Under the pieces are notes generated by a model. It did not search any database. It saw only the letters and a list, made by a program, of their open reading frames with translations, and was not told where the DNA came from. A program made the translations under genes and the position numbers. Source: a virus. Taken from it: 64,000 nt of DNA. The stretch is taken from the IMG/VR virus record IMGVR_UViG_3300004369_000008, positions 1-64,000 of that record; one strand, 5' to 3'. Positions within the stretch are counted from its first letter, which is position 1; every line of letters begins with the position of its first letter. Shown here in pieces: positions 13,186-57,257 of the stretch.

Positions 13186-13214
13186 TTTACAATCCAAAAA
13201 TTGCACCGTAAAAT
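13186..13214 (+). promoter_or_regulatory. Conserved promoter, AAA+/RNA-ligase unit
   Basis: TTTACA, 17 bases including CCAAAA, then CG-TAAAAT. It shares -35, spacer motif and -10 with promoters at 18776, 22566 and 57230. Confidence 0.7.
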
Positions 13215-13267
13215 ACTCCCATGCGTAGAGGTTTCCAAACCATCAAACACATGGGAGTATTTTCGTC

Positions 13268-14569
13268 ATGGCAACTGCCAAGCGACCGAAGCTGCCTTCT
13301 CACCAGAAGAACGATGATGGGATGACTGATCCATACATCGTCTTCACGCTTGTTCGTCAGAATTCCCAACGTACCAATGATGAAACTGTTGGCCGTCAGG
13401 TCGATGAGATCATGAGTGGTACGTTGGCAGGCGACCGTGCCATGTGGGAAGTCGATGATATCGAGAAGCACGCTCCCACGCAACAAGGCGAATACTGGTA
13501 CTTCCGGTACGTCGTGACCATCACTCGAAAGAAGGGCCGCAAGCAGAACAATGCTCTCTCCTTGTCGAGTGAGAAGCATCATATCATGGACGTGTTGAAG
13601 CAGAAGTGCGGCGTCTCCAAATTCGGCAAGTATCCGTGGGAAGTCACGGATCATGCTGTCTCATGGGAAGAGACACCTAACATCACTGGCGACAGCATCG
13701 AAGAATTCTCCATCAACGATGTCGTTGACTTCAACCAAGCTAAGACTTGGGATGACATCGAAATCCCCGAAGTGCTGCTCAAGGGCACAGATTCCGAAAT
13801 CGAACGCCACCCGGCCTTCAAGGGTATCTTCGGTCGTGCTGCGCATATCCGTGTTATCTTCTCATCAATCAAGACGATGGTAGATACGAAGGGAATGCGC
13901 CGCAATCACTGTCTTCTCTGGGGATTGCCTGCATGTGCGAAGTCTCATCTCATGCTTGGCGTACAAGAAGTGCTGGGAAAGGGCGGATACCTCGCCATCA
14001 ATGGCAACTCCGCTACCAAGGCTGGCATCGAGCGAATCTTCCTTGATCGACTGAAGCAGACAGGGACTCCCCCGGTTGTGTTCATCGAAGAGATCGAGAA
14101 GACCCTCGAAGCCATTCTTACTGTCTGGCTTTCCATCCTCGATGATCGGGCTGAAGTCCGCAAGATCACTCACCACGATCAGCACAAAGCTGAGGCTCGT
14201 GTGCTGGTGATTGGTACGGCCAATGACAAGGTTCTGTTCGACCGGCTCATGGGTGGTCGTCCCCGTCATCCCGGTGCAATCTCCAGTCGCTTCACCAAGA
14301 AACTGTATGTTCCTCGTCCTGACGAGCAGATCATGCGGAAGATTCTGTCTCGGGACATCAAGTTATACGGAGGCGATATGGTGTGGGTTGATTCCTGCAT
14401 CGATATCATGCGAGAACTGGGCACGAACGACCCTCGTACTGTGCTGTCGCTTCTGGATGGTCAGGATCGTCTCTTGACTGGAGAGTACAAGAAGGATATC
14501 CTTGCAATACATCAATTGGAGCAGACAGATCGTGCTGCTGACGAAGAAGAATTTGAAGTCCCTGAATAA
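13268..14569 (+). CDS. AAA+ ATPase with degenerate Walker A
   Basis: 433 residues. Residues 1-200 are an N-terminal domain of unknown fold. The AAA+ core follows: Walker A GLPACAKSH (219-227, where the usual Gly before Lys is Ala), Walker B VVFIEEIEK (270-278, Glu-Glu instead of Asp-Glu), sensor-1 region GTAND (316-320) and a GAISSRF Arg (341). The active site may therefore be weak or specialised. First gene behind the 13186 promoter and followed by the 14584 gene at 14 bases. Possibly a remodelling ATPase (MoxR/RuvB-like); the partner is unknown. Confidence 0.75.
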   Translation: MATAKRPKLPSHQKNDDGMTDPYIVFTLVRQNSQRTNDETVGRQVDEIMSGTLAGDRAMWEVDDIEKHAPTQQGEYWYFRYVVTITRKKGRKQNNALSLSSEKHHIMDVLKQKCGVSKFGKYPWEVTDHAVSWEETPNITGDSIEEFSINDVVDFNQAKTWDDIEIPEVLLKGTDSEIERHPAFKGIFGRAAHIRVIFSSIKTMVDTKGMRRNHCLLWGLPACAKSHLMLGVQEVLGKGGYLAINGNSATKAGIERIFLDRLKQTGTPPVVFIEEIEKTLEAILTVWLSILDDRAEVRKITHHDQHKAEARVLVIGTANDKVLFDRLMGGRPRHPGAISSRFTKKLYVPRPDEQIMRKILSRDIKLYGGDMVWVDSCIDIMRELGTNDPRTVLSLLDGQDRLLTGEYKKDILAIHQLEQTDRAADEEEFEVPE

Positions 14570-14583
14570 CACGGAGGAACATC

Positions 14584-15099
14584 ATGTCATACGCAGTCGT
14601 TGAAAACGGCGCTTGTCTTCATATCAGTGAAGATGCGGCCTCAGCGGTTAAAACTTTCGAGTCGAAACCCAATTCCAAGTTAGTACGAGTTGCCAACTTG
14701 GAAGAACTCCAAGTTGCAGTCGAAGCAAGCAAGAACGTCGAATCGTGCAATGTCGAAGACGATGACATCTCCAATGTTCTTCGTCAACTCCTCGACAAAC
14801 TGGACGAAAATGGTATCAATGCTGAGAACGCCGAAGAGCTTCGCAAGAAACTCCAGTCCGGTGGGGAACAGCTTGTCGCTGAAGTGAGAAGTCTCGGAAT
14901 CCGTGGAATGCGTGTTGTTGGGGATGGTCTGGCGGCACTTGGAGACTTTATGCGAATCGCCTCGGAAGAGAACGACGTGCAGGCACAATCAACTGACGAG
15001 GGTAGCTGCTGGGTTCCACGTCGCCCGTGTGTGACCGGGGGGCCGGATGACTGCTGTGGTGGTAGCAACTCGTGTGAACACAAACACAAACAAGAATAG
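14584..15099 (+). CDS. Unknown protein with Cys-rich C-terminus
   Basis: 171 residues, SD GGAGG, directly downstream of the AAA+ gene and probably in its operon. Largely helical middle (LRQLLDKLDENGINAENAEE) and a Cys-rich end (six Cys in the last 35 residues) that may bind metal. No family recognised. Confidence 0.55.
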   Translation: MSYAVVENGACLHISEDAASAVKTFESKPNSKLVRVANLEELQVAVEASKNVESCNVEDDDISNVLRQLLDKLDENGINAENAEELRKKLQSGGEQLVAEVRSLGIRGMRVVGDGLAALGDFMRIASEENDVQAQSTDEGSCWVPRRPCVTGGPDDCCGGSNSCEHKHKQE

Positions 15100-15174
15100 G
15101 GGCTTTGGCCCTCTAAGTTAATCGTCCTCATGGATTGAGGGTGATACAATTTTTGCAAGGAAGCGAGGACAAGG

Positions 15175-16317
15175 ATGTCCAGTCTAATCGTAGAAGTATG
15201 CGCAGTAGAAGAAGTTGCGCCTCATTCAAATGCTGATCGCCTAGAGCGAGTCCGAGTTAAAGGCTGGTGGTGCATTGCGCCAATTGGCCAACTCCATGTT
15301 GGGGACAAGTGCGTCTATATCCCACCTGATGCTGTTCTCTCCGAAGAACTGGCAGACAGGTGGGGCATCTCCAAATACTGTGGTGAACTCGCCAAGCTGC
15401 CCAATGGCGAACGACCACCGGGCAAACGTGTCCGTGCTTGTCGTTTTCGGGGCGAAAGTTCGTTTGGTACATTGCAACCTCTCGACGACCCAACATGGGA
15501 AGTTGGCAGGGATGTCCGAGAACATTTCGGCATCACCAAGTACGAACCACCTATCAAATCCAACGAAGGCGACTCTGCGCCAGAAATTCCTGAATTTCAT
15601 CGATACACAGGCATTGAGAATCTCGCCAACTTTCCTACCATTTTTTCAGAAGGAGAGGAAGTTGTTGTCACAGAAAAGATTCACGGAACGAACTGCCGCA
15701 TTGGTCTGGCCTTTATTCCAGATCGAGACGGACATCGTGCATGGGCTTTTGTAGCTGGCTCTCATAGCATTCGTCGTTACGAATACAGTCAATCAGAATC
15801 AGGGAAACGACATAGAAGTCGTTACTGGTTTCCATTGCCCGAAGGCGAGGACAAATATGATTCACCACTCGCCAATCTCATCGAAGACGTTTTGTTTAAC
15901 GAAAAAGCAGAAAGCTCTGTCATTGTCTTCGGCGAAATCTTCGGTGCTGGTGTTCAAGATATGCAGTATGGACAGAAAGGTATGTCCTTCCGTATCTTCG
16001 ATATTAGTGTCGATGGAAAATACATTGACCCAGATTCACTTCTGAAATACTGTGAGCGGTTTGAGGTCGAAACTGTGCCTGCACTTTACCGTGGTCCTTT
16101 CTCATTGGCTAAGATGGACGAACTGGTTGATGGACCTACTACAATCTGCGATCCGAGTGAGATCAAAGAACCGTTCAAAGGAAGAGAAGGAATCGTAATA
16201 CGTCCAGTCAATGAAAGGTACAACTTTGACTTGGGCGGTGATGGCCGGGTAATCCTCAAATACATCAGTGCGGACTACCATGAGCGCCGTAACAAAAATT
16301 GTACCGAAGACCATTAA
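15175..16317 (+). CDS. ATP-dependent RNA ligase, DraRnl (Rnl5)-like
   Basis: 380 residues. Residues 1-110 form the OB-like N-terminal domain typical of the Deinococcus DRB0094 ligase family (HSNADRLERVRVKGW, GDKCVYIPPDAVL). The nucleotidyltransferase domain begins with motif I KIHG at K168 (TEKIHGTNCR), followed by FGEIFG (motif IIIa-like), EGIVIR (motif IV) and ILKY (motif V). All catalytic motifs appear intact. It seals RNA nicks by lysine adenylation and likely repairs tRNA or other RNA cut by host nucleases. Confidence 0.9.
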   Translation: MSSLIVEVCAVEEVAPHSNADRLERVRVKGWWCIAPIGQLHVGDKCVYIPPDAVLSEELADRWGISKYCGELAKLPNGERPPGKRVRACRFRGESSFGTLQPLDDPTWEVGRDVREHFGITKYEPPIKSNEGDSAPEIPEFHRYTGIENLANFPTIFSEGEEVVVTEKIHGTNCRIGLAFIPDRDGHRAWAFVAGSHSIRRYEYSQSESGKRHRSRYWFPLPEGEDKYDSPLANLIEDVLFNEKAESSVIVFGEIFGAGVQDMQYGQKGMSFRIFDISVDGKYIDPDSLLKYCERFEVETVPALYRGPFSLAKMDELVDGPTTICDPSEIKEPFKGREGIVIRPVNERYNFDLGGDGRVILKYISADYHERRNKNCTEDH

Positions 16318-16326
16318 GGAGAAGAA

Positions 16327-17992: not shown

Positions 17993-18000
17993 ACGAACCA

Positions 18001-18023
18001 AAGGGACACTCCATGTGTCCCTT
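18001..18023 (+). terminator. Short hairpin after the membrane-protein gene
   Basis: AAGGGACAC (18001-18009), loop TCCAT, GTGTCCCTT (18015-18023), followed by GTTTT. Confidence 0.6.
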
Positions 18024-18044
18024 GTTTTCATGGAGGAATAGGAA

Positions 18045-18122
18045 ATGGATAAAACAGCCCTTGGAGACCGCATGAAGTGGTTCTTCGGAGAAGACCCGGT
18101 GTTGAAAGAAGACGACGAGTAA
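18045..18122 (+). CDS. 25-residue microprotein
   Basis: ATG with a strong SD (GGAGGAA, 7 bases away) opens a 25-residue frame, MDKTALGDRMKWFFGEDPVL plus an acidic end. It is bounded by hairpins on both sides, so it is expressed as a unit or as read-through from the membrane genes. Amphipathic (MKWFF then DDE). Function unknown. Confidence 0.5.
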   Translation: MDKTALGDRMKWFFGEDPVLKEDDE

Positions 18123-18126
18123 CCTA

Positions 18127-18160
18127 AAATGCCACATCCTTGCGAATGTGGCATTTTTTT
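18127..18160 (+). terminator. Rho-independent terminator
   Basis: AAATGCCACAT (18127-18137) pairs with ATGTGGCATTT (18146-18156), followed by a T tract. Confidence 0.85.
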
Positions 18161-18172
18161 TGGAGTCTAGGG

Positions 18173-18754
18173 ATGCGTCAATCAGAAGCACTACAAATTT
18201 TGGAACAGAAAATTTCCAAATGCACACTTTGTGCAGACCTGTCTCAATATCGATCTGACAATGAGTACCTGACTGTTCCCGGTGAGGGACGACCCAACGC
18301 CCAAGTTATGATCGTTGGAGAAGCTCCCGGTCAAAATGAGGCCAAACAAGGTAGTCCATTTGTAGGGAAAGCTGGCAAGTTGTTAGATGGTATCATTGAG
18401 GCATGTGGCTGGACTCGTTCAGAAGTATTTATCGCCAACATTCTGAAATGCCGACCGCCCGGAAATCGTGACCCGCTCCCTGAAGAAGCCACAAATTGCC
18501 GTACTTATCTAAACATGCAAATCAAGATCATCAATCCTAAATGGATACTTTGCTTCGGCAAGGTGGCATCGATCAATCTTCTGGGAAGAACCCCAGATAC
18601 GCCCATGAGAGCCTTGAGAGGTGATGTTTACGAACACGAAGGTCGAAAGGTGATTTGCACTTATCATCCTTCATATCTGCTGAGAAATCCTGCTGCCAAG
18701 AAAGATGTGTGGGAGGATTTACAGCCTTGTCTTCGGGATTTGTCCTCCAAGTGA
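18173..18754 (+). CDS. Family-4 uracil-DNA glycosylase (Fe-S)
   Basis: 193 residues from the ATG at 18173; the frame opens at 18140 but inside the preceding terminator, so the later start is preferred. Four Fe-S cysteines are present: C17, C20, C93 and C109. Motif A is GEAPGQNE (49-56) and the late motif is HPSYLLR (165-171). It removes uracil from DNA. In a phage this implies DNA repair, or editing of deaminated or dU-containing DNA. Confidence 0.9.
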   Translation: MRQSEALQILEQKISKCTLCADLSQYRSDNEYLTVPGEGRPNAQVMIVGEAPGQNEAKQGSPFVGKAGKLLDGIIEACGWTRSEVFIANILKCRPPGNRDPLPEEATNCRTYLNMQIKIINPKWILCFGKVASINLLGRTPDTPMRALRGDVYEHEGRKVICTYHPSYLLRNPAAKKDVWEDLQPCLRDLSSK

Positions 18755-18775
18755 CATATTTTTGATCCGATTTGC

Positions 18776-18803
18776 TTTACAGCCCAAAAGTCGTTCGTAA
18801 AAT
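18776..18803 (+). promoter_or_regulatory. Conserved promoter, first NAD+ unit
   Basis: TTTACA, 16 bases (GCCCAAAA...TCG), TAAAAT. Same design as 13186, 22566 and 57230. Confidence 0.75.
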
Positions 18804-18854
18804 AGTTTCGTCAAGGGAATTTACCCAGAACGTCACAACAACAAGGACCAAATC

Positions 18855-19742
18855 ATGCGAATTGACCTGTTCATCGTTGACGGTCTCAATGATTTTTGTG
18901 CCACCGGCAATGAGTCGTGGAATCTTGAGAAGCGTCGTGGTGCATTATTCGTCGATAACGCCGACACAGAGGCTCAACTCTGTGCCGACATGATCGAACG
19001 ACTTACACCCTCGGACCAACCATCAAAGCTCGCCAAAATTCACAAATTCTGCGACGAGCATCACAAGAACGACATCGCTCATCCGGGTTTCTGGAAAAAA
19101 CCGGACGGCTCTCATCCCGGCCCATTCACTGGCCCTGTTACGCTCGCCGATGTGGAGAGCCATCGTCTGACTCCTGTTCTCGACGGTTGGCGACCACGAG
19201 TTCTGGCCTATATCAAGGCTCTGGATAAGCGAAGCCGCAATCCTCTCATCATCTGGCCGGAACACTGCCTGTTCAAGTCGTGGGGCGCTTGCGTCTACAA
19301 GCCCATCGCAGATGCTCTCAATCTGTGGTGTGAACGAACTGGCGGATGGGTCAACTTCATCGACAAAGGCCGTTTCCCGCTGACCGAACACTACGGCGGA
19401 TTCGAGGCGGATGTGCCGGATGACGACCATCAGGACACCAAGTTCAATACAAAACTTGTGCCAGACTTGGAAGCCGCTGACAAGGTGGCGTGGATTGGTT
19501 GGGCTGGTTCGCACTGTCTTAAATGGACGGCAAGCGACGGGATCAACTACTTCACCGATCCCAACGATGGCTCAAATGCGCTCGTGAAGAAGTCCATCTT
19601 TTTCGAAGACGGTTCTGCCCCGGTCGTATCTCCTGATCCTCAGCAAACGGCCATGTTCGCCCAGTGGCGTCGGGACTTCCTCGACGAAATGGACAAACGT
19701 GGTGCTACGATCACGAAGACGACAGAGTTTCTCAAAGCATAA
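18855..19742 (+). CDS. Nicotinamidase-like cysteine hydrolase
   Basis: 295 residues. The isochorismatase/nicotinamidase layout is visible: D9 in FIVDGLNDF, HPGFW (76-80), WPEHC (134-138), DKGRF with candidate catalytic K171 followed by HYGGF, and candidate nucleophile C221 in WAGSHCLKWTA. This matches the Asp-Lys-Cys triad of PncA, which converts nicotinamide to nicotinate. It is longer than usual PncA (about 210 residues), with an insertion at about 20-100. pncB and nadE downstream make the nicotinamidase assignment the best one, although other cysteine hydrolases share the fold. Confidence 0.75.
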   Translation: MRIDLFIVDGLNDFCATGNESWNLEKRRGALFVDNADTEAQLCADMIERLTPSDQPSKLAKIHKFCDEHHKNDIAHPGFWKKPDGSHPGPFTGPVTLADVESHRLTPVLDGWRPRVLAYIKALDKRSRNPLIIWPEHCLFKSWGACVYKPIADALNLWCERTGGWVNFIDKGRFPLTEHYGGFEADVPDDDHQDTKFNTKLVPDLEAADKVAWIGWAGSHCLKWTASDGINYFTDPNDGSNALVKKSIFFEDGSAPVVSPDPQQTAMFAQWRRDFLDEMDKRGATITKTTEFLKA

Positions 19743-20872: not shown

Positions 20873-21418
20873 ATGATTTTCATTAACGAACTCGATGTCA
20901 TGCAAGATGGTTTCCGGTTGGCAAAACCGCAACTGTGCGACATGGTTAATTTTGTTGCACAAGGCGGGAGATTCAATCACGAATCGTTGTTGCAGCACAA
21001 CCCTCAGAGAACATCTCTGGTGGCTGTGGTCGAGTTCGAAGATGGCCGCAGATTCATCCGAGATGGGTTTCACAGAGCGGCAGTGATCCTTTTTGCCCGA
21101 GACGTGCCGTGCATATTTGATGATGAATACGTCATTGAGAATATGACGTATGACATGTATCTCGAACCGAACATTGAAAATCAATGGTACACGCCATTTG
21201 ATCCACGCATCGAAGTCAGACGGTCTGACTTCTTTAATTTCAAAGATGAAGTTTTATCTCGCATCGATCAAGATGGTGTGATTGATTTCATCAAACAAAA
21301 CAAGGATCGTTACGCTATACCTCGAAATAGCAGTCACAAACTCGTGACTCATGCCGAGAAACTATGGCCAATTTGGAATCAAGATCATGCCGATCATCAA
21401 GTCAATGCTAGACAATGA
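20873..21418 (+). CDS. ParB/sulfiredoxin-like domain protein
   Basis: 181 residues from the ATG with GGGAAGAG upstream; a TTG start 15 bases earlier is also possible. The segment VVEFEDGRRFIRDGFHRAAVILFARDVPCIF matches the ParB-like nuclease core (DG.HR.A). Such small ParB-like proteins in phages can be nucleotidases, ATPases or nucleases. The 51722-52222 gene has the same core. It overlaps the pncB start by 32 bases. Confidence 0.65.
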   Translation: MIFINELDVMQDGFRLAKPQLCDMVNFVAQGGRFNHESLLQHNPQRTSLVAVVEFEDGRRFIRDGFHRAAVILFARDVPCIFDDEYVIENMTYDMYLEPNIENQWYTPFDPRIEVRRSDFFNFKDEVLSRIDQDGVIDFIKQNKDRYAIPRNSSHKLVTHAEKLWPIWNQDHADHQVNARQ

Positions 21419-22559
21419 TTTGTATAAATACTCGATGCAAGCGGCGGTGTTGGAATACCGCCAGCATGTACCTGTCAAATATGTCTTCAAGAACCGCCGA
21501 CCAGAAGGCAAGTTCAATAAGGCATTCATGACTGGACTCAACCAAGAGTTGGAATCCATGTCAGAGGTCGCTGCAAAAGATGAAGAACTGCAATGGTTCC
21601 AAGATACTTGTCCATTCATGACGGATCAGTACATGGAGTATCTTAGGAACTACCGATACAACCCAGCAGACATCAGTGCAAAACTCGTGGACGGCGATCT
21701 TCAATTAGAAATCAACGGCTCTTGGGATCGCACCATTCTCTGGGAAGTCCCTCTCATGAGCGTGATCTCAGAGTTGTATTTCACTCATTGCGACACCAAC
21801 TGGGCACATGACGAAATTGCTCAAGCCAATGCTTTGATTGAAAAGGGGAATCGACTCAAAGATTGTAGTCTGGCTGACTTTGGAACTCGCCGTCGTCGCA
21901 GCCATAACATGCAAGATTTGGTGGTGAGAACCCTCAAGCAATTCCCTAAATTTGCGGGAACGAGCAATGTACATTTGGCGCACAAATATGGCGTCAAACC
22001 AATCGGCACGATGGCCCACGAATGGATCATGGGAATCAGTGCCCTTGAAGGTTTGAGATTCGCCAACCGACAAGCTCTGAACATCTGGAGCAAAGTCTTC
22101 CGTGGTCGTCTGGGAGTGGCCCTGACGGATACATTTGGAACAGGTGCGTTCTTTGAAGATTTCGACGACTACCTCGCCCGTCTGTTTGATGGTGTGCGAC
22201 ATGATAGCGGTGATGCCTTGGTGTTTGCACGCAAAGTAATTAGTCATTACAAAAAACTTGGGATCGATCCGAAAACAAAAACCATTGTCTTCAGTGATGG
22301 ACTTGATGTGGACACGGCCCTACAAATCCAGAAGGAGTTGGATGGTCTGGTTCGGATCAGCTTCGGCATCGGAACGCACTTAACCAATGACTATGCAGGA
22401 TCGAAGGCTCTAAACATGGTCATCAAACTGTGGTCTTGTAATGGCGTTACTGTGGTCAAGCTGAGCGACGTTGCTGCTAGTAAACAAATCGGTGACAAAG
22501 ACGCTTTGCGTGTCGCCAACTGGACTTTCTTCAACACTCCATTGGATTCAGTTGTATAA
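21387..22559 (+). CDS. pncB: Nicotinate phosphoribosyltransferase
   Basis: 390 residues. The whole length reads like bacterial PncB: SMLDNDLYKYSMQ at the N-terminus, FGTRRR (165-170), GTSN (191-194), AHEW with the phosphorylatable H211, RHDSGD (271-276) and VFSDGLD. It converts nicotinate + PRPP to nicotinate mononucleotide in the Preiss-Handler route. FGTRRR and AHEW distinguish it from nicotinamide phosphoribosyltransferase (NadV/NAMPT), the enzyme more often noted in phages. I chose the ATG at 21387 because it aligns with PncB starts and has GGAA upstream; a Met at 21351 lacks an SD. Confidence 0.93.
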   Translation: MPIIKSMLDNDLYKYSMQAAVLEYRQHVPVKYVFKNRRPEGKFNKAFMTGLNQELESMSEVAAKDEELQWFQDTCPFMTDQYMEYLRNYRYNPADISAKLVDGDLQLEINGSWDRTILWEVPLMSVISELYFTHCDTNWAHDEIAQANALIEKGNRLKDCSLADFGTRRRRSHNMQDLVVRTLKQFPKFAGTSNVHLAHKYGVKPIGTMAHEWIMGISALEGLRFANRQALNIWSKVFRGRLGVALTDTFGTGAFFEDFDDYLARLFDGVRHDSGDALVFARKVISHYKKLGIDPKTKTIVFSDGLDVDTALQIQKELDGLVRISFGIGTHLTNDYAGSKALNMVIKLWSCNGVTVVKLSDVAASKQIGDKDALRVANWTFFNTPLDSVV

Positions 22560-22610: not shown

Positions 22611-22793
22611 GTGGAAGATCGAATCCAAACATTGGAACGGATTTCAGGGCTTCAGGTCTCACACCGAATGGAGAAGGAACAACATGTCTTTACATTCGGC
22701 GTTGGTCCTCGTAACAAACCTGCGGAAAGGAACTTGAATGCCAACCCCAATCGTAAAAGCTGGACTTGGCATTCTTGTCATCAAAGACTCTAA
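22611..22793 (+). CDS. Small protein upstream of the Nudix gene
   Basis: 60 residues from GTG with a strong SD (AGGAGG). It overlaps the Nudix gene by 56 bases. The first 40 residues (ERISGLQVSHRMEKEQHVFT) look like real coding sequence; the Trp/His-rich end overlaps the Nudix start. It could be a leader for coupling. No family recognised. Confidence 0.45.
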   Translation: MEDRIQTLERISGLQVSHRMEKEQHVFTFGVGPRNKPAERNLNANPNRKSWTWHSCHQRL

Positions 22794-23214
22794 GGTTCTC
22801 ACTGGCATTCGCAAAGGAAGCCATGGAGAAGGCAGGAGAGCGTTTCCGGGTGGTCATATCGATTCAGAAGACGAATCTCTCGTCCATGCCAGTTGTCGTG
22901 AATTGTCAGAAGAGTGTGGTATTCAAGTTCAACACCGATTGATCCGGGGTGGTTGGGACTTGTTTACAACATTCGACATTCTCAGCGAAGACGGACAGAA
23001 ACGGTATGTGACCATTTACATGGTTGCCGACTATATTTCTGGTGGCGAGTGGATCGACGATCACACTCTGAAAGGACTAGAACCGGATAAGTGCGAGAAG
23101 TGGGAGTTTCATTCACTTGAAACTTTGGCCAAGTTAATCAAAGCCGAAGGAGATCAAGTGTGGATTCCCATTGATCGAATCCAACTTCAACAGGAGACCT
23201 TGAATGAACGGTAG
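22738..23214 (+). CDS. Nudix hydrolase
   Basis: 158 residues. Nudix box around residues 38-62: GGHIDSEDESLV then RELSEECGI. It has one residue more than the classical GX5EX7REUXEEXGU spacing, but keeps RE..EE.G. Overall it resembles MutT/NUDT15-type nucleotide pyrophosphatases. Within the NAD+ unit it could hydrolyse NAD-related dinucleotides, ADP-ribose or damaged NTPs; the substrate cannot be read from sequence. It lacks an NMN adenylyltransferase domain, so it does not supply the missing NadD step. Confidence 0.85.
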   Translation: MPTPIVKAGLGILVIKDSKVLTGIRKGSHGEGRRAFPGGHIDSEDESLVHASCRELSEECGIQVQHRLIRGGWDLFTTFDILSEDGQKRYVTIYMVADYISGGEWIDDHTLKGLEPDKCEKWEFHSLETLAKLIKAEGDQVWIPIDRIQLQQETLNER

Positions 23215-23758
23215 CATTCCTCCTTTTCTGATGCCTTTCATGCAGCAGGATGACGGACGACGCAGCCCTGCGGACGACGCTTTTGTTCCCCCTCGCATCA
23301 ACAAGGCCATTGAGTTCCTTGAACTCATGGCTCTGAAGCGTCGGAGACAAGCGGCTGCATCCGATCATCAAATGGAGGTTATCGAACCTGACAATCTCTG
23401 TGCTGAGGAAGAAGCAGCACGAGATTCAGCACTCCAATGTCTTGCCAAATACTTTGATGGCAAGCTGGAAAACAACGTCTGGGAAGAGCTTCGCCTACAA
23501 TCCATCAAGCAGAAGGTGGAACACGAAGGGCAATGCGGACATGGCGTCAGCGGTGGCGTAGGTCGTATGATGAGTTGTCCGGCTTGCCACCAAAGTCCTC
23601 AACCCGATCCAAATTGCTCTCTGTGTGAAGGCTGTGGCCACTTGATGGTTCAGCCTGCTACGCCAGAGAATGTTCCACACCCCATTATGACGATCATGGA
23701 ACAAATCTTCAAAGCTCGTCCTCAACGGGGAGACGAAAAAGATGGAGACGCAGAATGA
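23204..23758 (+). CDS. Zinc-ribbon protein, unknown
   Basis: 184 residues. The C-terminal third has CGHG, CPAC and CSLCEGCG, a DnaJ-type or rubredoxin-like zinc module; the front is helical and charged. It overlaps both neighbours (Nudix by 11 bases, nadE by 4), indicating tight co-translation in the NAD+ unit. No family recognised. Confidence 0.6.
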   Translation: MNGSIPPFLMPFMQQDDGRRSPADDAFVPPRINKAIEFLELMALKRRRQAAASDHQMEVIEPDNLCAEEEAARDSALQCLAKYFDGKLENNVWEELRLQSIKQKVEHEGQCGHGVSGGVGRMMSCPACHQSPQPDPNCSLCEGCGHLMVQPATPENVPHPIMTIMEQIFKARPQRGDEKDGDAE

Positions 23759-25887
23759 ACGAGTTCGGTTTTGTCCGCATTACCGCTGTATCGCCGGTAC
23801 TCAAGGTCGGCGATCCCGATTTTAACACCACCAAAACGTTACAAGTTTTGGAACAGGTGCAAGACTCAGACATCGTAGTGTTTCCAGAACTCGGCATCAC
23901 TGGCTACACCTGCGGTGATCTGTTCCGTCAAGACACCCTCTACTACTCGATCTTCGAGCAGTTGGTCCGGCTCTGCGACTACAGCAAGAACCGACCACAC
24001 CAGTTGATCTTCGTAGGTGCGCCTTTCCGACTCGACAACAGCCTCTACAACTGTGCCTTCGCCATCAACAATGGTCGTGTAGTTGGGATCGTCCCCAAAC
24101 AGAACATCCCCAACTACAACGAGTTCTACGAAGGACGGTGGTTCCGCCGAGCAACTGGACAAGAACGCCAGAATGTTGCGTTGCTCTCTGGGCCACTCGC
24201 TGCGAGGAACATTGGGTTTGTCAACAGATGCCCGGTCTTATTCTTCGAGGCGTCCTTCAAATGGGTCCAAATATGCAATTCCCATGTGCCTTTCGGAACC
24301 AATCTGATCTTCTGGCACAAAGATGTGGGGATCATGGCTGAAATCTGCGAGGACTTGTGGATGCCCATTCCACCAAGTTCCTACGCCGCCCTCGCTGGGG
24401 CGCACATTATGGTCAACTTGTCGGCCAGTAATGAAACAGTCGCCAAGTGCGAATACCGACGTGCCCTCGTTGCCCAACAGTCTGGCCGCTGCATGTCGGC
24501 CTACATCTATGCTTCGTCTGGGCCGAAAGAATCAACCAGTGATGTTGTCTTTGGTGGGCATTGCCTCATCGCTGAGAACAGTCACATGTTGATTGAATCG
24601 GAACGAGTCGGCGATGGCAAGTTGCATACGGGCGGCTCTGTCTTCATCACAGCGGACGTGGACGTTCAGAAGTTGCAAGCCGAACGTCGCTGCACAACCA
24701 GCTTTGGCGATGCCTCCAACAACACCAACCAATTCCAGCCTGTTCGGATTGAGTTGCTCGAAGAAGAAACTCCGAAACCGTTGATCCAGAAACGGAATGG
24801 GCGTCCGTTCGTTCCTCAAAACGAAACCACGCTTCACAATCGGTGTGCCGAAATCTTCGGGATTCAGGTCGCTGGACTTTCCAAGAGAATTGAACGTCTC
24901 GGCGGACAACCTGCGTTGCAAATCGGAATCTCTGGTGGCTTGGACTCCACTCTGGCTGCATTGGTGGCTGCCAAGGCGTGTAAGATAACCGGCTTCAAGT
25001 CAAGCATCATCAAGGCAATCACAATGCCGGGGTTTGGGACAACGCCCAAGACCAAGACAAACGCCTTGGCTCTCATGGAACATCTGGGATTCGAGTCGGA
25101 CACCATCGACATTCGACCGGCGTGTCTCCAGACATTTCGGGACATCAAACACAGCCCTTTCGGAATTGACTTGGGACAAGCTGGAGAAGCCGGATCGCTA
25201 GGAGTTGAAGGCTTAACAGGCACGCTTGCTGGACTTAATCCAGAAGTCCTCGCCCAAGGCGATCTCAAGTTCGAGAACATTCAGGCTCGCCAACGGACCT
25301 ATCTGCTCATGAGCCGGGGGTTCGTGTTGGGGACGGGTGATCTCTCTGAGTTGGCCTTGGGGTGGTGTACCTACAATGGCGATCACATGAGCATGTACAA
25401 CGTAAACTGCTCGATCCCCAAGACGCTCGTGAAGTTTCTCGTCAATTACGTTGCGATGCACGAGTATGACGATGGGCCGGTGCGACAAACGTTGTTGGAC
25501 ATCGTTGGCACAAAGATTTCCCCAGAACTTTTGCCGCACAATCAGGGCGAAATCGTACAATCCACTGAGGATGTCCTTGGACCATACGAGTTGCACGACT
25601 TCTACCTCTTCTACCTCATGAGAAACGGATTCTCGCCGAAGAAAATATGGTATCTCACCAACAATACCATATTCACTCAGAACTACAGCCCAGAACTCAA
25701 GCTGAAGACGCTGCGAACGTTCATTGCACGCTTCTTCTCTCAGCAATTCAAACGGAATTGTGTTCCTGATGGTCCAAAAGTTGGTTCTGTCAGTTTGTCA
25801 CCTCGTGGTGATTGGCGTATGCCATCCGACGCCGACGCAACTCTGTGGCTCAAGGAAGTAGACGATATTGAATGGAGCTTGCGATGA
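23755..25887 (+). CDS. nadE: Glutamine-dependent NAD+ synthetase
   Basis: 710 residues, normal for the two-domain enzyme. The N-terminal nitrilase/glutaminase domain has the triad E45 (FPELGITGY), K115 (VPKQN) and C198 (AEICED). The C-terminal synthetase domain has the PP-loop SGGLDS at 393-398. All key residues are present. It amidates nicotinate adenine dinucleotide to NAD+, using glutamine. With pncB and the nicotinamidase-like gene it supplies three of the four Preiss-Handler steps; NadD (adenylylation) is not in the window. Start is ATGA-coupled to the zinc-ribbon gene. Confidence 0.95.
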   Translation: MNEFGFVRITAVSPVLKVGDPDFNTTKTLQVLEQVQDSDIVVFPELGITGYTCGDLFRQDTLYYSIFEQLVRLCDYSKNRPHQLIFVGAPFRLDNSLYNCAFAINNGRVVGIVPKQNIPNYNEFYEGRWFRRATGQERQNVALLSGPLAARNIGFVNRCPVLFFEASFKWVQICNSHVPFGTNLIFWHKDVGIMAEICEDLWMPIPPSSYAALAGAHIMVNLSASNETVAKCEYRRALVAQQSGRCMSAYIYASSGPKESTSDVVFGGHCLIAENSHMLIESERVGDGKLHTGGSVFITADVDVQKLQAERRCTTSFGDASNNTNQFQPVRIELLEEETPKPLIQKRNGRPFVPQNETTLHNRCAEIFGIQVAGLSKRIERLGGQPALQIGISGGLDSTLAALVAAKACKITGFKSSIIKAITMPGFGTTPKTKTNALALMEHLGFESDTIDIRPACLQTFRDIKHSPFGIDLGQAGEAGSLGVEGLTGTLAGLNPEVLAQGDLKFENIQARQRTYLLMSRGFVLGTGDLSELALGWCTYNGDHMSMYNVNCSIPKTLVKFLVNYVAMHEYDDGPVRQTLLDIVGTKISPELLPHNQGEIVQSTEDVLGPYELHDFYLFYLMRNGFSPKKIWYLTNNTIFTQNYSPELKLKTLRTFIARFFSQQFKRNCVPDGPKVGSVSLSPRGDWRMPSDADATLWLKEVDDIEWSLR

Positions 25888-29761: not shown

Positions 29762-32700
29762 GTGAAGACATCTTTCAGAAAGTTCATCGTAAACACCAGT
29801 CGGAACAATCCCACATGGTCAGAAATGGCGATGGGAACCCGTCTGGACACAAAATGGGGTGGTTTACCCACGAATCAAGGTTTGTGCAATGTTGTCAGCC
29901 TAGCAGCAAATTCGGATTCTGACAGAGCTTTACTTTTCAAATGGCTACTCAATGATGGTTTGTATCAAGCTGTTCAAGCCAGAAACAATCTTACAGAATG
30001 GGCCATTGAACAACTGGACTATGAAGTACCAATTCATACTCAAGGACTTCCAGAACCAGCCGTTGGCGGTCTGAGAAAAGCTGTAGGGGAATCTGTGCAA
30101 TATAAGGAAGCTTTAAGATCAAGCGAAGAACCTGCACCACCTCGAATTCACAAATACGAAGATCAGATTATCAACCCACTCGACCTCTTTTCTCCAACGA
30201 TGAGAAAAAAGATACCAGAGTTGGGCCAGCACGCTGACGAGATTGATGCCAAATGGAAGACAGACTTTGAAGATAAGTTGGCCATTCCAATCTTCAGAAA
30301 TGGCAAGGCGAAAGGTTCGATACAGTTAGCCAACTTGAATGCCATCTTAGAATCCAAAGGCTACGAAGGGTTTCATTATGGACCACACATCACAAGCTCT
30401 GGAAAGTGGTCTGGCGGTTATCTTCAGAGTGTAGAAAAAGGTGATTGGCTTCAGCCGGGGCAACAGGCACATTGGTCCGATAAAGGTCAACGACATGGAC
30501 CAGACCTAAGCCAAGCCGAAATGGTAGAGGATGATAAAGGCAGAGCATTCTATGTGTTTGATAATATGGCCACGCCACAGGATGAGTACGCACTTCGACG
30601 AAAAGCCGCAGTGATGAAGCAAAGGTTTGTAAACCTTGTCAAAGATGTAGGACAAGGAAAGTCAGACATTTCTGACATGCACCAGCAGATCGCCCAAAGA
30701 GTGAAAGCTGGAGACTTTGAAAAAATGCAATGGACTCCGAGCAAGCCTAATCAATATGCCAAGGATAAGTTTGGTGTAGATGCTCGCACTGCGCAATCTG
30801 AAGCTGTTTATCCAACAGAGGTCATCAAAGATATAATCCCCTTGGTTCAAGCGGGATTAAAAGGTCCATTCAAAGTTGCCAATCTTGAAGATAAACTAGC
30901 TGGGGTTCCACCAGAAATTGTATCAGACATGATTATCAAGCGTGAAGGTGACAACTTCTGGATGAGTGACAAGTTCCAGAAAATGGCTTTTGATTTCATT
31001 TTCCAGCATGTTGACATAAATGATCTGGATTCGCAAGAAGAATGGCAGTTGATGCCCAAGAACAAGTGGAAGTCATTCTTGGACAAGTCTGGTACATTCA
31101 ATAAAGAAAAAAAATGGACATCGCCTTGGACTGATTTGTTCTTCACGTTGTCTTCTACGATTTCCAATGGCACTCAAAGTCACCCAGAGCTAATGACGCC
31201 TGCTATCAATTTTTCAATCAGGAAAGGTGTATTGCCAATTGAAGATATCGCCAAGCAAAACGAACTTGAACACAGAGAACTTACACCACAAGGTTTGGCA
31301 GGCTTGGTGAATCAAGGATACAGAATCAATGGTCAGTCAATTCCAAACGATATTCAAGAAATTATGTCTATGCTTGACTCCCATGGCCACAGTAAGTTGT
31401 TGGCCAAAAAGGGAGATCACGTTGTTGAATTAAGGAAAGAGAAAGATGGGAAATACTATGCAGTCTTCCAATCTTCGGGCGACAATCCATTTGGCGATCT
31501 CGGAGAACCAGATGGACACATGGCAGCCGGTCTTCAAATGCCCGTTTCAATGGGCCAAGGAAGAATGGGAATTTTTCCAACCGGAACATCAGAAGAACAA
31601 GATGACTTCGAAGAAAAACTCATGCGTGGAGATTTTGGTGAAGGTGATGCTGTAGGAAATGTCACAGAACTCCAATGTGTAAAAACTGCTGTCGGCGCTG
31701 CTATCAAACAATACAAGAACAGCGGACATCAAAGAGGAACTGTCTCTGACGCCAAGGGCAATAAATCCAGAGGTGCTGCAAGCGAAGCAGACATTGACGA
31801 TATCTTTGGTGGGTTCAATGGAATACTGGGCATGGGTGCTGAAGCACTAAAGGCTCTTGGCGGACACTATGCAATGAAGTACGGTTTCATCACAGATGAG
31901 CAGTACAAACAAAATACCAAATTCGATGCCGCTGATGAATTGAATAAGATTGATGGTGGCAGGACATTCTCAGCCAACCTCGAAGAAACAATGGACAGAG
32001 TTGGTGTTGACATCGATGATGTTGCACCAATTGTTGATAGAGTTTGGAAGACAATCCAAAGAGGAGATGGACCTAAGCCAGAAGACTTTAGAGATTACAT
32101 TGAGCAATTTGGAAAGAATTTCTGGGCAGCAGTAAAGCACGCATTGAACTCAAATGCCAAAGCCGGTCGAACACGCCTTATTAAGAATTACATCTTCAAC
32201 AAAATGGAGAAGATGAAGCAATCCCAAGTTAATCAAGGTGGAGTTAATGCTCTAAATGTTGTAGATGATGCCGAAGGACGTGGAGATGCTTTGGGAGGTG
32301 GAAAAACCTTCAAGTCTGTCGATCCGTTTGGCGGAAGAGTAATGTTGTTGGATGATGATAACTTCGTATTTCTCAAGAAATTCGGAGCAAAGCTTTATGG
32401 CAAAGAACCACTTCCAGAAAGTCTTGATGAACTAAAGGCATTGATTGATGCTGATGCTAATGGAACAGTTTCAGTTAGTTCGGTCATTCAAATGAAACCA
32501 GAAGAGTTGAAAAATTACTTGAAAGACAAATCTGATATTGAACATCTTTCAAAACTTTCCGGTATTAAATTCAAGCTGTATCTCTACAAAGGTCTTAGAG
32601 AAAAAGATGTTGTGAGTTACATCGATCAAGAGACAACAGAAGAAGCTTACTTGATGAAAGCAACTCGTCCAGATGATCTCGGAAAAGGTCAGGATCAGAG

Positions 32701-33425: not shown

Positions 33426-34120
33426 CTAAAATCAGGGTTGACATCAGACGGGAGTGCTTTCACTAGGAAGCCTCCCGTTTTTGGTTCAATCTCTTCAACT
33501 CGCCACCATCGACTCTCTTTTCTGCGTGGCATGATAACAGAACCTTTGGTCATTGTTTTCACACACCAGAAGACAATCTCTAGGTCGTTTTCATCGACAA
33601 CGACAGCATCAAAAACAAACTTGTCTCCGTATCTGTTCATCTTATATTCTGTTCCATACAGATCATCCTTCATTGTAATCTGTACGACTGGGGCACAATG
33701 AAACTCCATGCCTCGCTCACTAAAAATACGAGCCACTTGAGAACTGACATTGAACTCTTTGACTTCTTCCTTTGGTAGCAACATTGGTGCGCTTGTCTCA
33801 AATTCATCAATCACTGGTGACTCTTCTTCAACAACAGCGATTTCAGTCAATGGCTTGGAAGACTTGAGTTCATTCACGAACTCAAAAGGTGGAATCCATT
33901 CAGCATTGGGACGAAGATCAAGTTCTTCAGCGATATCAATTTGTGGATGCTCTTTCTTAAACTTCTCTTCGGGAGAAACTGGGTCTTTAGCAATCTCAGA
34001 ATCCCATGAGAAATTATGCAGGACCAGTTTGGATTTATCCCAATCCAGAGCTTGGTCGTTCATCAAAGGATTTGGTCCTCTGAGCTTGTAGACCTTTCCT
34101 TGTTTATCACGAATTGGCAT
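33422..34120 (-). CDS. Unknown protein
   Basis: 232 residues: a Trp/Pro-containing front (NFSWDSEIAKDPVSPEEKF), an acidic linker, and a C-terminal globular region (KFVFDAVVVDENDLEIVFWC). No family recognised. SD AGGA. Overlaps the upstream HTH gene by 14 bases. Confidence 0.55.
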   Translation of the reverse strand: MPIRDKQGKVYKLRGPNPLMNDQALDWDKSKLVLHNFSWDSEIAKDPVSPEEKFKKEHPQIDIAEELDLRPNAEWIPPFEFVNELKSSKPLTEIAVVEEESPVIDEFETSAPMLLPKEEVKEFNVSSQVARIFSERGMEFHCAPVVQITMKDDLYGTEYKMNRYGDKFVFDAVVVDENDLEIVFWCVKTMTKGSVIMPRRKESRWWRVEEIEPKTGGFLVKALPSDVNPDFS

Positions 34121-34460
34121 GTTTGTATCCTAACTTCACATCTGCTTCACCGCCAATTACAAAACTTGTAATGTTTCGGTGAATGCTATTGTTGACAATT
34201 TTGCTGATGAGTGACTGACTCACTTGGTATTTATCCGCCAGTTCAGTTTGCGTGTATTCTTTCGTTTGATACAAGGTGCGTATCTCGCCCACTTGTAGGC
34301 TTTCCAATCTATCCAAACCGAAGTTTGTGAGTCCATTAGCTTTCAAAACTCGATTGAGAGTTCTTCTACTAATATGGAACTGTTCGCAGACTTCTTGTCG
34401 TGATTTCTCAGAAACTAATAGCTTGAGGTCGTTTATGTTCAAATCTCTTATTTTGGCCAT
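34107..34460 (-). CDS. Small double helix-turn-helix protein
   Basis: 117 residues with two HTH-like units: SRQEVCEQFHISRRTLNRVL and TQTELADKYQVSQSLISKIV. Same plan as the 3010-3333 gene. Both sit directly beside the paralogous MALV structural genes (34539 and 3414), so the HTH-structural pair looks like a duplicated cassette. SD AGGTG. Confidence 0.7.
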   Translation of the reverse strand: MAKIRDLNINDLKLLVSEKSRQEVCEQFHISRRTLNRVLKANGLTNFGLDRLESLQVGEIRTLYQTKEYTQTELADKYQVSQSLISKIVNNSIHRNITSFVIGGEADVKLGYKHANS

Positions 34461-34496: not shown

Positions 34497-34505
34497 TATA
34501 TAAGA
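34497..34505 (+). promoter_or_regulatory. TATATAAGA late-promoter-like element
   Basis: 34 bases upstream of the 34539 start, a normal promoter distance. Exact match to the 9-mer at 8153, 27913 and 35756. Confidence 0.5.
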
Positions 34506-34538: not shown

Positions 34539-34940
34539 ATGGCACTTGTATGTCCCGATGTTAAAGGTGAGATTCTTCTCCTGCAATACATTGTTGGTAT
34601 GGTAAATGCTGACAATCCCGTTCTCCATTTGTATGGTAACGACATAACTCCATCTGATTCTACAGTCATTGGCGATTTGACCGAGGTTGCTGGTGCAACT
34701 GGGTATGCGTCAGTTACTCTGCTGTCAGCAAACTGGACAACTACTCAATCTGCTGGTGTGACCACGGCTGTTTACTCTGAGCAGACATTCACATTCACGA
34801 CAGATGCGACTTCTTATGGATACTACGTTACAGACGAGAGTAACAACTTGCTGTGGCTTGAGAGATTCAGCGGCGCACCGTTTGATATACCTGATGGTGG
34901 AGGTACGATCAGTATTACGGCTAAGCTGACGCTTAGCTAA
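34539..34940 (+). CDS. Small structural-type protein, paralogue of the 3414 gene
   Basis: 133 residues, SD GAGG. MALVCPDVKGEILLLQYI, then a Thr/Ser/Tyr-rich beta region ending TISITAKLTLS. Shares start, size and layout with 3414-3836. Stand-alone unit with its own late-type promoter and a strong terminator, which suggests high expression. Probable virion or fibre-associated protein. Confidence 0.6.
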   Translation: MALVCPDVKGEILLLQYIVGMVNADNPVLHLYGNDITPSDSTVIGDLTEVAGATGYASVTLLSANWTTTQSAGVTTAVYSEQTFTFTTDATSYGYYVTDESNNLLWLERFSGAPFDIPDGGGTISITAKLTLS

Positions 34941-42948: not shown

Positions 42949-43524
42949 TCAGTTTATTATGCCTCGGGACATACCAACACCGCTCATTGAGATTTCTTTT
43001 CCATTCTTATAGAACACATGATCGAAACGATCCTGCAACCAAGTGTGATATCTCTTCTTTAATTCATTGTAGTTTCTAGCACTACGATATAGCTGGCGAA
43101 AATGGTTCAAAATACATGTTGTCATGTAATTGAAAGCTTTGGCTTTTTGCCCGCTTTTTCCTCGATAGTTTGGATTAAACCTATCGACTTTCTCAAAGCA
43201 AATAAGAACACCTTCTTGAATAGCGTCATCTACGTCAATTCCACTGAATTTGGCGTAATTTGCGATGTTCTCTGATAGAATGTAGAAAGCAACCGCTAAT
43301 CTATCCTGACAAGCCTTGAAGCACATGCTCGCTTCTTTGTGTTGGCTTAAGATTGCTTCCAGTTGCTCTTTCTTGATGTGATCTTTGTATTTAACGAAAC
43401 GTCTGTTGTGAGTTTCTTCAAGATCGGCAATTATGAGTTCGAGTTTCGCTTTCTGTCTCTTGTAGAATTGAAAAGCTTGGATAATAGACTCGAAATCCTT
43501 GTTATTAAGGTACTCGTTAGCCAT
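42949..43524 (-). CDS. Late transcription sigma factor, T4 gp55-like
   Basis: 191 residues, SD GGAGGA. The hallmark block is very clear: DVDDAIQEGVLICFEKVDRF, then KAFNYMTTCILNHFRQLYRS and ARNYNELKKRY, the region 2-like core of T4 gp55. It directs host RNA polymerase to late promoters (T4 core TATAAATA) with sliding clamp gp45 and gp33. This supports a T4-like late programme and candidate TATATAAGA/CATAAATA elements. The C-terminus ends with MSGVGMSRGIIN. Confidence 0.93.
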   Translation of the reverse strand: MANEYLNNKDFESIIQAFQFYKRQKAKLELIIADLEETHNRRFVKYKDHIKKEQLEAILSQHKEASMCFKACQDRLAVAFYILSENIANYAKFSGIDVDDAIQEGVLICFEKVDRFNPNYRGKSGQKAKAFNYMTTCILNHFRQLYRSARNYNELKKRYHTWLQDRFDHVFYKNGKEISMSGVGMSRGIIN

Positions 43525-55321: not shown

Positions 55322-56079
55322 ATCATCTTCACTTTCTTGTTTGTGGTCAGTTCCGAAAATGTATGAAGCCACTCTATCAAAGATGAAGCCCACAATGCTT
55401 TCTTGTCAATCGGATGTTTAAGAGGCACAACCCAAGAAGCTAAATTGGAAACATCTTTGCATCTAATCAGACATGTGTAAGAACCAATGTGTTGATTGTA
55501 ACAACTCATTGGCTCTGGGACATAGAGTCTTTTGGCCTCATAAAGTTTCCTCAATAGGTATTTGTGATTTTGAAGCAACAAATGTAACTCATGTTGAGAA
55601 AGTTTCTTAAGAAAGCCTGCTTTGATGCAATGATCGCTAGTGCAATAAATCATCGATCTTTGAAAGCTATCTTGACCCCAATAACTCAAGCTTCTGATAT
55701 TGATGTAAGAATTGCAAATTTGCTGCCATTGTAAAACATCAATTGAGTCGCCCATTTCTGAATTGATGAAGTCAGATATTTCAGGATGCAACCAATCGTC
55801 ATCGTCCATGGGAATGACAATATCGTTGTTGTTTAATTTGTGAACATCTGAGTATTTGCTTATGACTTGAACTGGGCATATTTCCGTTGCCTTTTCTTTA
55901 AGACGATAACGGAATTTTTGCCAACTGTTCTGATATTTTTTATTCCAATCTTCAAGAAGGTTAACCAGAGGTTCTGGCAAGTGATCCGATGAGCCATCTC
56001 CCATGGTAATAGGCTGACGGCACTGGTCAATACTGATGTCCTTCCAGTCTTCTGTTGATCTTAAAAAAACGTATATCAT
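55318..56079 (-). CDS. Family 2 glycosyltransferase-like protein
   Basis: 253 residues from MIYVFLRSTEDWKD; the frame is open to 56151. VIPMDDDDWLHPEI is the DxD site. First gene of a five-gene minus-strand glycosyltransferase run. A TTAGATACATAG element lies just upstream. Confidence 0.7.
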   Translation of the reverse strand: MIYVFLRSTEDWKDISIDQCRQPITMGDGSSDHLPEPLVNLLEDWNKKYQNSWQKFRYRLKEKATEICPVQVISKYSDVHKLNNNDIVIPMDDDDWLHPEISDFINSEMGDSIDVLQWQQICNSYINIRSLSYWGQDSFQRSMIYCTSDHCIKAGFLKKLSQHELHLLLQNHKYLLRKLYEAKRLYVPEPMSCYNQHIGSYTCLIRCKDVSNLASWVVPLKHPIDKKALWASSLIEWLHTFSELTTNKKVKMI

Positions 56080-56203
56080 TTGAAAAATAACCCCTATGTA
56101 TCTAATATATTGTGAGCGAAAAAATCCTCGGAGGCGTGACTTAGCCTCCAAAGCAATTTTGCACAGCCCAATTGAGGATGAGGGTGCTAAAAGGAGATAA
56201 GTT

Positions 56204-57148
56204 ATGGTTTATTCCAACAAATTTGTGATGTGTGTCTTGCTCAATGGCAAGCCACTGGAAGAACTGGCCAATGGCCAAGTGAAACTTCCCTTCGGTACTG
56301 AGTATGCTTTAAGACTCCGCAACCGAAACAACCGCCGAGCGGTCGTCAAACTCTACATCGACGGCGAAAACGTCTCTGCTGGCGGATATGTTGTTCCCGC
56401 TAACAACTTCATCGATATCAAGCGTCACCATGACGTGGATCGAGCTTTCAAGTTCGTTTCCCTCGACAGTGAAGATGCTATCGACTTCGGAAAAAATGGT
56501 CCGAACGAAGATAAGGTAAAGGGAACCATTGAGGCTCGCTTCTATCTGGAGAAAGAGCAACCACAGGTGGTCTATCGTGATGTTCACCATCATCACCACC
56601 CAGTGCCACGTCCTCAGCCATGGCCAAATCCTTATCCATTAAGACCATATTACACATGTGGCGGGGAAGGGTTAGAAGGATTGAGAACCACATGTGGTGG
56701 CGGTTCAAGTGGCCAAAGTTATAGCAACTCGCTATCGTTTGAAGGTGGCGGAACTCAAAACTCTGCTGGAGCATCATTCAATGCTGCTCCTGAAACAACA
56801 CTGTCATTCAGTGGTGACGTTGCCCCAGCATCATTCAATGCTGCTCCTCTCAAGGATGGCTGTACGGTTGAAGGATATGTCACCGGCCAGAGTTTCACGT
56901 CAACATGGATTGACACCGAAGAAACCTACACCAGTGTCAAAGTCTTTCTCCAAGGATTTGAGGAAGAAAAGCCAGTTTCCGTCGCAAAGCCCTCTAAGAA
57001 GAAAAGTCGAAACGGGAGCAGAAGACGCCCAACGAACAAAGATGTTCGTCTCGATGATCTTGAGGCAGAGAACGAAGAACTTCGCCGGAAACTTGCTGAA
57101 ATTGAGAACGAAAAACTCAAAGCAAAACTCAAAGAATCTGAGAAGTAA
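56204..57148 (+). CDS. Beta-domain protein with His/Pro linker and coiled-coil tail
   Basis: 314 residues, SD GGAG. Residues 1-120 form a compact beta domain (KFVMCVLLNGKPLEELANGQ, then AVVKLYIDGENVSAGGYVVP). Then a VHHHHHPVPRP linker, Gly/Ser/Asn-rich repeats (ASFNAAP twice) and a basic region leading to a C-terminal coiled coil (LEAENEELRRKLAEIENEKL). Looks like a structural or display protein. Function unknown. Confidence 0.6.
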   Translation: MVYSNKFVMCVLLNGKPLEELANGQVKLPFGTEYALRLRNRNNRRAVVKLYIDGENVSAGGYVVPANNFIDIKRHHDVDRAFKFVSLDSEDAIDFGKNGPNEDKVKGTIEARFYLEKEQPQVVYRDVHHHHHPVPRPQPWPNPYPLRPYYTCGGEGLEGLRTTCGGGSSGQSYSNSLSFEGGGTQNSAGASFNAAPETTLSFSGDVAPASFNAAPLKDGCTVEGYVTGQSFTSTWIDTEETYTSVKVFLQGFEEEKPVSVAKPSKKKSRNGSRRRPTNKDVRLDDLEAENEELRRKLAEIENEKLKAKLKESEK

Positions 57149-57170
57149 CGAGAACTGTTCATAGAAGCAG

Positions 57171-57203
57171 AGAAAGCCCACCTCATCGGTGGGCTTTCTT
57201 TTT
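57171..57203 (+). terminator. Rho-independent terminator
   Basis: AGAAAGCCCACC (57171-57182), loop TCATC, GGTGGGCTTTCT (57188-57199), then Ts. Confidence 0.9.
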
Positions 57204-57229
57204 GTCCCAAACAAAATTTGCACTTTCGG

Positions 57230-57257
57230 TTTACAGCCAGATTTTGAGTCGTAGAAT
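57230..57257 (+). promoter_or_regulatory. Conserved promoter of the second AAA+ gene
   Basis: TTTACA, 16 bases ending TCG, TAGAAT. Same type as 13186, 18776 and 22566. Confidence 0.75.

What the first reader, a model, noticed from the sequence alone, without database searches (positions are those of the whole stretch)
13186..57257. One promoter design shared by four units across 44 kb
TTTACA, a 16-17 base spacer usually with CCAAAA and ending in CG, and TARAAT-A occur at 13186, 18776, 22566 and 57230. They drive the AAA+/RNA-ligase unit, both NAD+ units and the second AAA+ gene. This points to a regulon read by host sigma70-type polymerase, probably early, or middle with an activator binding the CCAAAA element.
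Basis: seen in the sequence. Interest (0 to 1): 0.7.

Follow-up and report, generated by a model that had tools for sequence, protein, structure and literature searches.

The report
Shared early promoter in uncultured jumbo phages
Four start signals for gene reading in this phage share one design, and the same signal stands in front of the same genes (RNA repair, NAD+ rebuilding, an ATPase) in distant uncultured giant phages, so it is very probably a real early-gene switch of the type known from phage T4.

Summary
TTTACA-N16/17-TARAAT occurs exactly four times in the 73,986-base record, at the stated positions (0.03 expected); all four have CG before TARAATA and all are intergenic. The best evidence is from relatives. 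A 158-kb contig repeats the design, CG included, at about ten places. The nicotinamidase gene has TTTACA-N16-TANAAT just upstream in five of five phages. The AAA+ gene has it in 9 of 12 other contigs (31-54% protein identity, up to 532 kb). In a 245-kb relative all four window sites have a counterpart at the matching place, and seven of its eight sites precede RNA-repair, NAD+ or AAA+ genes. The -35 (TTTAC) is that of T4 early promoters. All five records tested encode a gp55-like late sigma, none an RpoB-type polymerase, and a TATATARG late-type motif stands before other operons. Best reading: T4-type early promoters read by host sigma70-type polymerase. The CCAAAA activator idea is not supported as a general element: it is absent at one of four sites and kept in few relatives. 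Timing and start sites are inferred, not measured.

The parts
13186..13214 (+). Promoter 1: TTTACA-N17-TAAAAT (ATCCAAAAATTGCACCG), before the AAA+/RNA-ligase unit
   Evidence: counterparts upstream of the AAA+ gene in 9 of 12 contigs
18776..18803 (+). Promoter 2: TTTACA-N16-TAAAAT (GCCCAAAAGTCGTTCG), before the nicotinamidase-like gene
   Evidence: counterpart in G009, G010, G011 and L046
22566..22593 (+). Promoter 3: TTTACA-N16-TAGAAT (AGCCAAAAACGTGTCG), before NUDIX / NAD synthase; starts 7 nt after the NAPRT stop, very short leader
   Evidence: G009 has TTTACA-N16-TATCCT upstream of NAD synthase
57230..57257 (+). Promoter 4: TTTACA-N16-TAGAAT (GCCAGATTTTGAGTCG, no CCAAAA), before the second AAA+ gene
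   Evidence: G009 has TTTACA-N16-TATACT after the same upstream gene, there before an RNA ligase
13268..14569 (+). AAA+-type protein (weak profile match to Spastin AAA domain), first gene of unit 1
15175..16317 (+). RNA ligase (PF09414, phrog_968)
18001..18023 (+). Terminator-like hairpin closing unit 1
18140..18754 (+). Uracil-DNA glycosylase family protein (PF03167), just upstream of promoter 2, also in G009
18855..19742 (+). Nicotinamidase-like protein, first gene of unit 2 (weak profile match; 39% identical G009 homologue)
21387..22559 (+). Nicotinate phosphoribosyltransferase (NAPRT)
22738..23214 (+). NUDIX protein, unit 3
23755..25887 (+). NAD synthase with CN-hydrolase domain, unit 3
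57173..57203 (+). Terminator-like hairpin with T-run (AAAGCCCACC-TCATC-GGTGGGCTTT-CTTTTT) just upstream of promoter 4
   Evidence: read directly
57325..58818 (+). Second AAA+ ATPase (PF00004, phrog_10440), GTG start after AAAGGA
42949..43524 (-). gp55-like late sigma factor
   Evidence: phrog_234 match here and in four relatives, none in 14 cellular control genomes; weak Sigma70_r2
34497..34504 (+). Late-type motif TATATAAG, 42 nt before gene 34539-34940 (others at 8161 -, 35756 +, 11775 -, 27921 -)

Best explanation
The four sites are early promoters of the T4 type. The host RNA polymerase with its housekeeping (sigma70-type) sigma binds TTTACA through sigma region 4 and TARAAT through region 2, with the CG before the -10 as an accessory contact, and starts units for RNA repair, NAD+ salvage and AAA+ ATPases soon after infection. 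A gp55-like phage sigma later moves the same polymerase to TATATARG promoters without a -35 for other operons, including structural ones. Shown: the sites, their rarity, intergenic placement, and conserved position and spacing in diverged relatives; a gp55-like gene and no detected RpoB-type gene. Inferred: transcription itself, its timing, which sigma, the role of CG, and the counter-defence purpose.
For: 4 exact sites vs 0.03 expected. Out of sample: G009 TTTACA to GTA...T peaks at spacer 16/17 (5+2 vs 0.12 per other offset); G010 TT.AC.-CGTA..AT 9+1 vs 0.19 and G011 ACTA..AT 5 vs 0.04. Nicotinamidase promoter in 5 of 5 phages; AAA+ promoter in 9 of 12 contigs, 0.004 expected per region. T4 shows the same -35 with the same method (TTTAC., peak at spacer 17) and in the literature (PMC1524935). 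No RpoB match; gp55-like sigma in all five records; gp55-type sigmas use no -35 (PMC1524935, general knowledge), so a conserved -35 points to a full sigma70-type factor.
Against: No transcript data. Host unknown, so the host sigma preference is untested. One relative, G001 (37% GC), shows no such set. The -10 of the NAD synthase counterpart in G009 is weak (TATCCT). The canonical TGn before the -10 is absent. Three of the 12 AAA+ loci have similar flanks and are not fully independent.
Confidence: 0.72

Rival explanations
1. Middle promoters: a phage activator made early binds the CCAAAA element (or the bases around TTTACA) and recruits the host sigma70 polymerase.
For: CCAAAA at a fixed place in three of four sites, CCAAA kept in the G010 AAA+ promoter; 3 of 34 sites elsewhere vs 2 of 611; the window codes for HTH proteins.
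Against: One of four sites lacks it, most relatives lack it, and the good -35 makes an activator unnecessary; T4 middle promoters replace the -35 by a MotA box 12 +/-1 bp from the -10 (PMC2988021), which is not the geometry here. No MotA/AsiA match (no positive control).
Confidence: 0.1
2. The promoters are read by a factor other than the housekeeping sigma: an alternative host sigma or a diverged phage sigma with region 4, whose specificity sets the lineage-specific bases before the -10.
For: The dinucleotide before the -10 differs by lineage: CG (G000, G010, G019, G021), AC (G011), mostly G at -13 (G009, G016).
Against: -35 and -10 stay close to the sigma70 consensus; the only Sigma70_r2 match in each record is at the gp55-like gene and Sigma70_r4 matches are generic HTH proteins.
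Confidence: 0.1
3. Promoters that are active throughout infection, not specifically early.
For: Sigma70-type elements alone do not fix timing; nothing measured.
Against: The presence of a late sigma and a separate late-type motif suggests tiers.
Confidence: 0.06
4. Recent copies of one mobile promoter cassette inside this genome, without a shared regulatory role.
For: CCAAAA and CG are shared within the window.
Against: Flanks and the rest of the spacers are unrelated, leader hairpins are not consistent, and each site has a counterpart at the matching place in G009.
Confidence: 0.02

Closest known systems
T4 early promoters (Straboviridae; Hinton 2010 PMC2988021, Nolan 2006 PMC1524935)
   Same: TTTAC -35 with T at -33, sigma70-type -10, G at -13 in many, promoter set ahead of takeover genes; T4 itself gives gTTTAC[AT]-N17-..TGG-TAnnnT with the same scan. 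Some relatives (L258, L267) read TTTACA-N17 ending GTGG-TATAAT, very like T4.
   Different: Window sites have C or G, not mainly G, directly before TTTACA, CG instead of TGG/TGn before the -10, mostly a 16-base spacer; no Alt homologue found (T4 rang as control).
T4 middle promoters (MotA/AsiA)
   Same: Sigma70-type -10; TGCTTTA-like letters precede some sites by chance of C/G-TTTACA.
   Different: A good -35 at normal spacing is present; the MotA box distance is not met; no MotA/AsiA match.
T4 late promoters (gp55, TATAAATA)
   Same: The phage has a gp55-like gene and a TATATARG motif ahead of other operons.
   Different: That is a separate class; the four sites have a -35.
Generic bacterial sigma70 promoters (e.g. 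E. coli lac, TTTACA -35; from memory)
   Same: -35/-10 hexamers and spacing.
   Different: Phage-family-wide preference for TTTACA over TTGACA at AAA+ and nicotinamidase genes, and fixed bases before the -10.

Membership tests
T4-type early promoter | -35 of the TTTAC type at sigma70 spacing | tested here: met
   4 of 4 sites; PMC1524935
T4-type early promoter | G at -36, directly before TTTAC | tested here: not met
   C, C, G, G in the window; C favoured family-wide 22 of 39. The literature notes that this position varies (RB43 G or C)
T4-type early promoter | TGn / GT-rich bases before the -10 | tested here: not met
   Window has CG at -14/-13 in 4 of 4; met in some relatives. The literature calls this feature variable among T4-like phages
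T4-type early promoter | A-rich UP element at about -40 to -44 | tested here: inconclusive
   25 bases upstream are 56-68% A+T against 55% for the record
T4-type early promoter | Transcribed at once by unmodified host sigma70 polymerase | not testable with these tools
   No RNA data; only inference from the elements
T4-like transcription programme | No phage RNA polymerase; gp55-type late sigma | tested here: met
   PF00562 absent in five records with controls ringing; phrog_234 in five of five. Records may be fragments; single-subunit polymerase not tested
T4-like transcription programme | Late promoters without -35 ahead of structural genes | tested here: inconclusive
   TATATA[AG]G 5 vs 0.7 (G000) and 9 vs 0.65 (G009), but no excess in AT-rich relatives
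T4 middle promoter | MotA box 12 +/-1 bp from the -10, with MotA and AsiA | tested here: not met
   Geometry differs; no MotA/AsiA match, without a positive control in the call

The most novel reading that the evidence does not exclude
A deeply conserved early regulon devoted to undoing damage by host defences (RNA ligase, Thg1, RNA-repair HAD and CPD domains, NAD+ salvage, AAA+), in which each phage lineage has re-tuned the two bases before the -10 to the sigma factor of its own host, so that this dinucleotide could help to read host identity from phage DNA.
Probability: 0.2. Interest if true: 0.7.

Novelty: new variant of a known kind. Interest (0 to 1): 0.45.

Why it matters
It gives a testable promoter map and a likely two-tier transcription programme for a large uncultured jumbo-phage family with no close relative among the phage records searched. 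It places RNA-repair, NAD+ and AAA+ genes under one probable early control, which points to early counter-defence, and the lineage-specific bases before the -10 may help to assign hosts.

Tried and rejected
Leader stem-loops: no consistent excess over shuffles, although the 22566 leader reaches z -2.8 over 100 nt. Unsupervised motif search upstream of genes found Shine-Dalgarno or coding signals only. A viral-contig scan for the full CCAAAA-containing pattern found nothing. Alt homologue: none, T4 rang. Sigma70_r4 hits are generic HTH proteins. Host search by tail sheath in bacterial genomes: only four distant actinobacterial hits, 27-31% identity, not informative. Three-mismatch version of the pattern and a generic sigma70 scan are at chance.

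Full report
OBSERVATION. The four sites read as described. In the whole 73,986-base record TTTACA-N14..20-TARAAT is found four times, all on +, none on -, none for the reversed control. An order-2 Markov model expects 0.03, and 0.005 with CG before and A after the -10. CGTARAATA occurs only there. Four of four lie between genes while about 6% of the record does. A generic sigma70 scan shows no excess over shuffles and a three-mismatch version is at chance, so the signal lies in the exact design.

RELATIVES. There is no near DNA match among phage records. Protein searches found collinear uncultured relatives: G001 (94 kb, 37% GC), G009 (245 kb, 58%), G010 (158 kb, 45%), G011 (123 kb, 49%). The tail sheath is 81-84% identical in the two compared, and 219 viral-contig stretches encode a relative of it: a widespread myovirus family.

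OUT-OF-SAMPLE TESTS. In G009 the distance from TTTACA to GTA...T peaks at spacer 16/17 (5+2) against 0.12 per other offset. In G010 TT.AC. to CGTA..AT gives 9+1 against 0.19; in G011 the dinucleotide is AC, 5 against 0.04. G001 shows no peak. G019 and G021 have CG with spacer 17. The 245-kb G016 has 13 TTTACA-N16/17-TANNAT sites, mostly with G at -13, but the reversed control gives 5 there. T4 as a positive control peaks at spacer 17.

ORTHOLOGOUS POSITION. Nicotinamidase: G000, G009, G010, G011 and L046 all have TTTACA-N16-TANAAT just upstream. AAA+: 9 of 12 distinct contigs (G009 and G010 among them) have TTTAC[AG]-N16/17-TANNAT within 200 bases upstream of the matched stretch, 0.004 expected per region, nominal p 4e-20; three of the nine have similar flanks, so this p is too small. 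Of the other three, one has TTTACA-N16-TATACT, one TTGACA-N16-TATAAT, one only a poor match. NAD synthase: G009 has TTTACA-N16-TATCCT, a weak -10. Site 4: the G009 site follows the same upstream gene, in one case overlapping a terminator T-run, but drives an RNA ligase.

WHAT IS DRIVEN. The eight G009 TTTACA sites precede AAA+, RNA ligase, Thg1, nicotinamidase, NAD synthase, a second RNA ligase, a HAD domain of RNA-repair proteins and one unknown gene. G010 sites precede AAA+, nicotinamidase, a CPD domain like that of tRNA ligase, CoaE, a radical SAM protein, a cold-shock protein and unknowns. Several of these genes are neighbours, so the enrichment is not fully independent. That they serve counter-defence (repair of cut tRNA, restoring NAD+) is inference from their families.

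SECOND TIER. A gp55-like sigma (window 42949-43524, -) is in all five records and in no cellular control. No RpoB family match. TATATA[AG]G occurs 5 times against 0.7 in G000 and 9 against 0.65 in G009, often shortly before a gene start; in AT-rich relatives there is no excess. This resembles T4 late promoters, with weaker statistics.

CCAAAA AND CG. CCAAAA is in 3 of 4 window sites, 3 of 34 sites elsewhere and 2 of 611 other TTTACA sequences: a minority feature, perhaps part of an A-tract preference (AAAA 9 of 34 against 51 of 611). C directly before TTTACA is enriched (22 of 39, p 3e-6). G before the -10 is strong (30 of 39), but the G009 sites were partly chosen for it. The lineage-specific dinucleotide is a description; its cause is not established.

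KNOWN KIND. T4 early promoters have GTTTAC at -36 to -31 and GT-rich bases before -12; relatives vary at -33 and -36 (PMC1524935). Middle promoters use a MotA box 12 +/-1 bp from the -10 (PMC2988021). The sites here fit the first kind and not the second; as two of the T4 details are not met, they are called a variant.

LIMITS. Nothing here shows transcription. Hosts are unknown. Records are fragments, and gene calls outside the window are crude. The names nicotinamidase and first AAA+ protein rest on weak profile matches plus conservation.

Noticed in passing
window 42949-43524 (-): gp55-like late sigma gene, present in all five records examined.
   Followed up: yes
window 8161 (-), 11775 (-), 27921 (-), 34497 (+), 35756 (+): TATATA[AG]G motif shortly before genes, a likely late promoter class.
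   Followed up: partly
window 3010-3393 (-) and 34107-34460 (-): Two small proteins with HTH domains, each divergent from one of a pair of paralogous genes (3414-3836 +, 34539-34940 +).
   Followed up: partly
window 12647 (-): Divergent TTGACT-N17-TATAAT upstream of gene 12109-12585 (-), with the same design in front of the homologue in G001 (27820 -) and L037 (3561 -).
   Followed up: partly
window 13163-13176: Perfect palindrome TGAGAAATTTCTCA ending 9 bases before the TTTACA of promoter 1; a possible operator.
   Followed up: no
window 13215-13223 and 13250-13258: 9-base inverted repeat ACTCCCATG / CATGGGAGT across the leader after promoter 1.
   Followed up: no
G009 (L016/L028 region) and G001 29900-30700: Thg1-family (tRNA-His guanylyltransferase) genes beside the RNA ligase in these phages; in G009 it has its own TTTACA promoter.
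   Followed up: partly
L007 1413, 6670, 11508, 14876, 17103: A more distant contig has its own promoter series TTGAC[AT]-N16/17-TANAAT with TGC before the -10, the canonical TGn.
   Followed up: no
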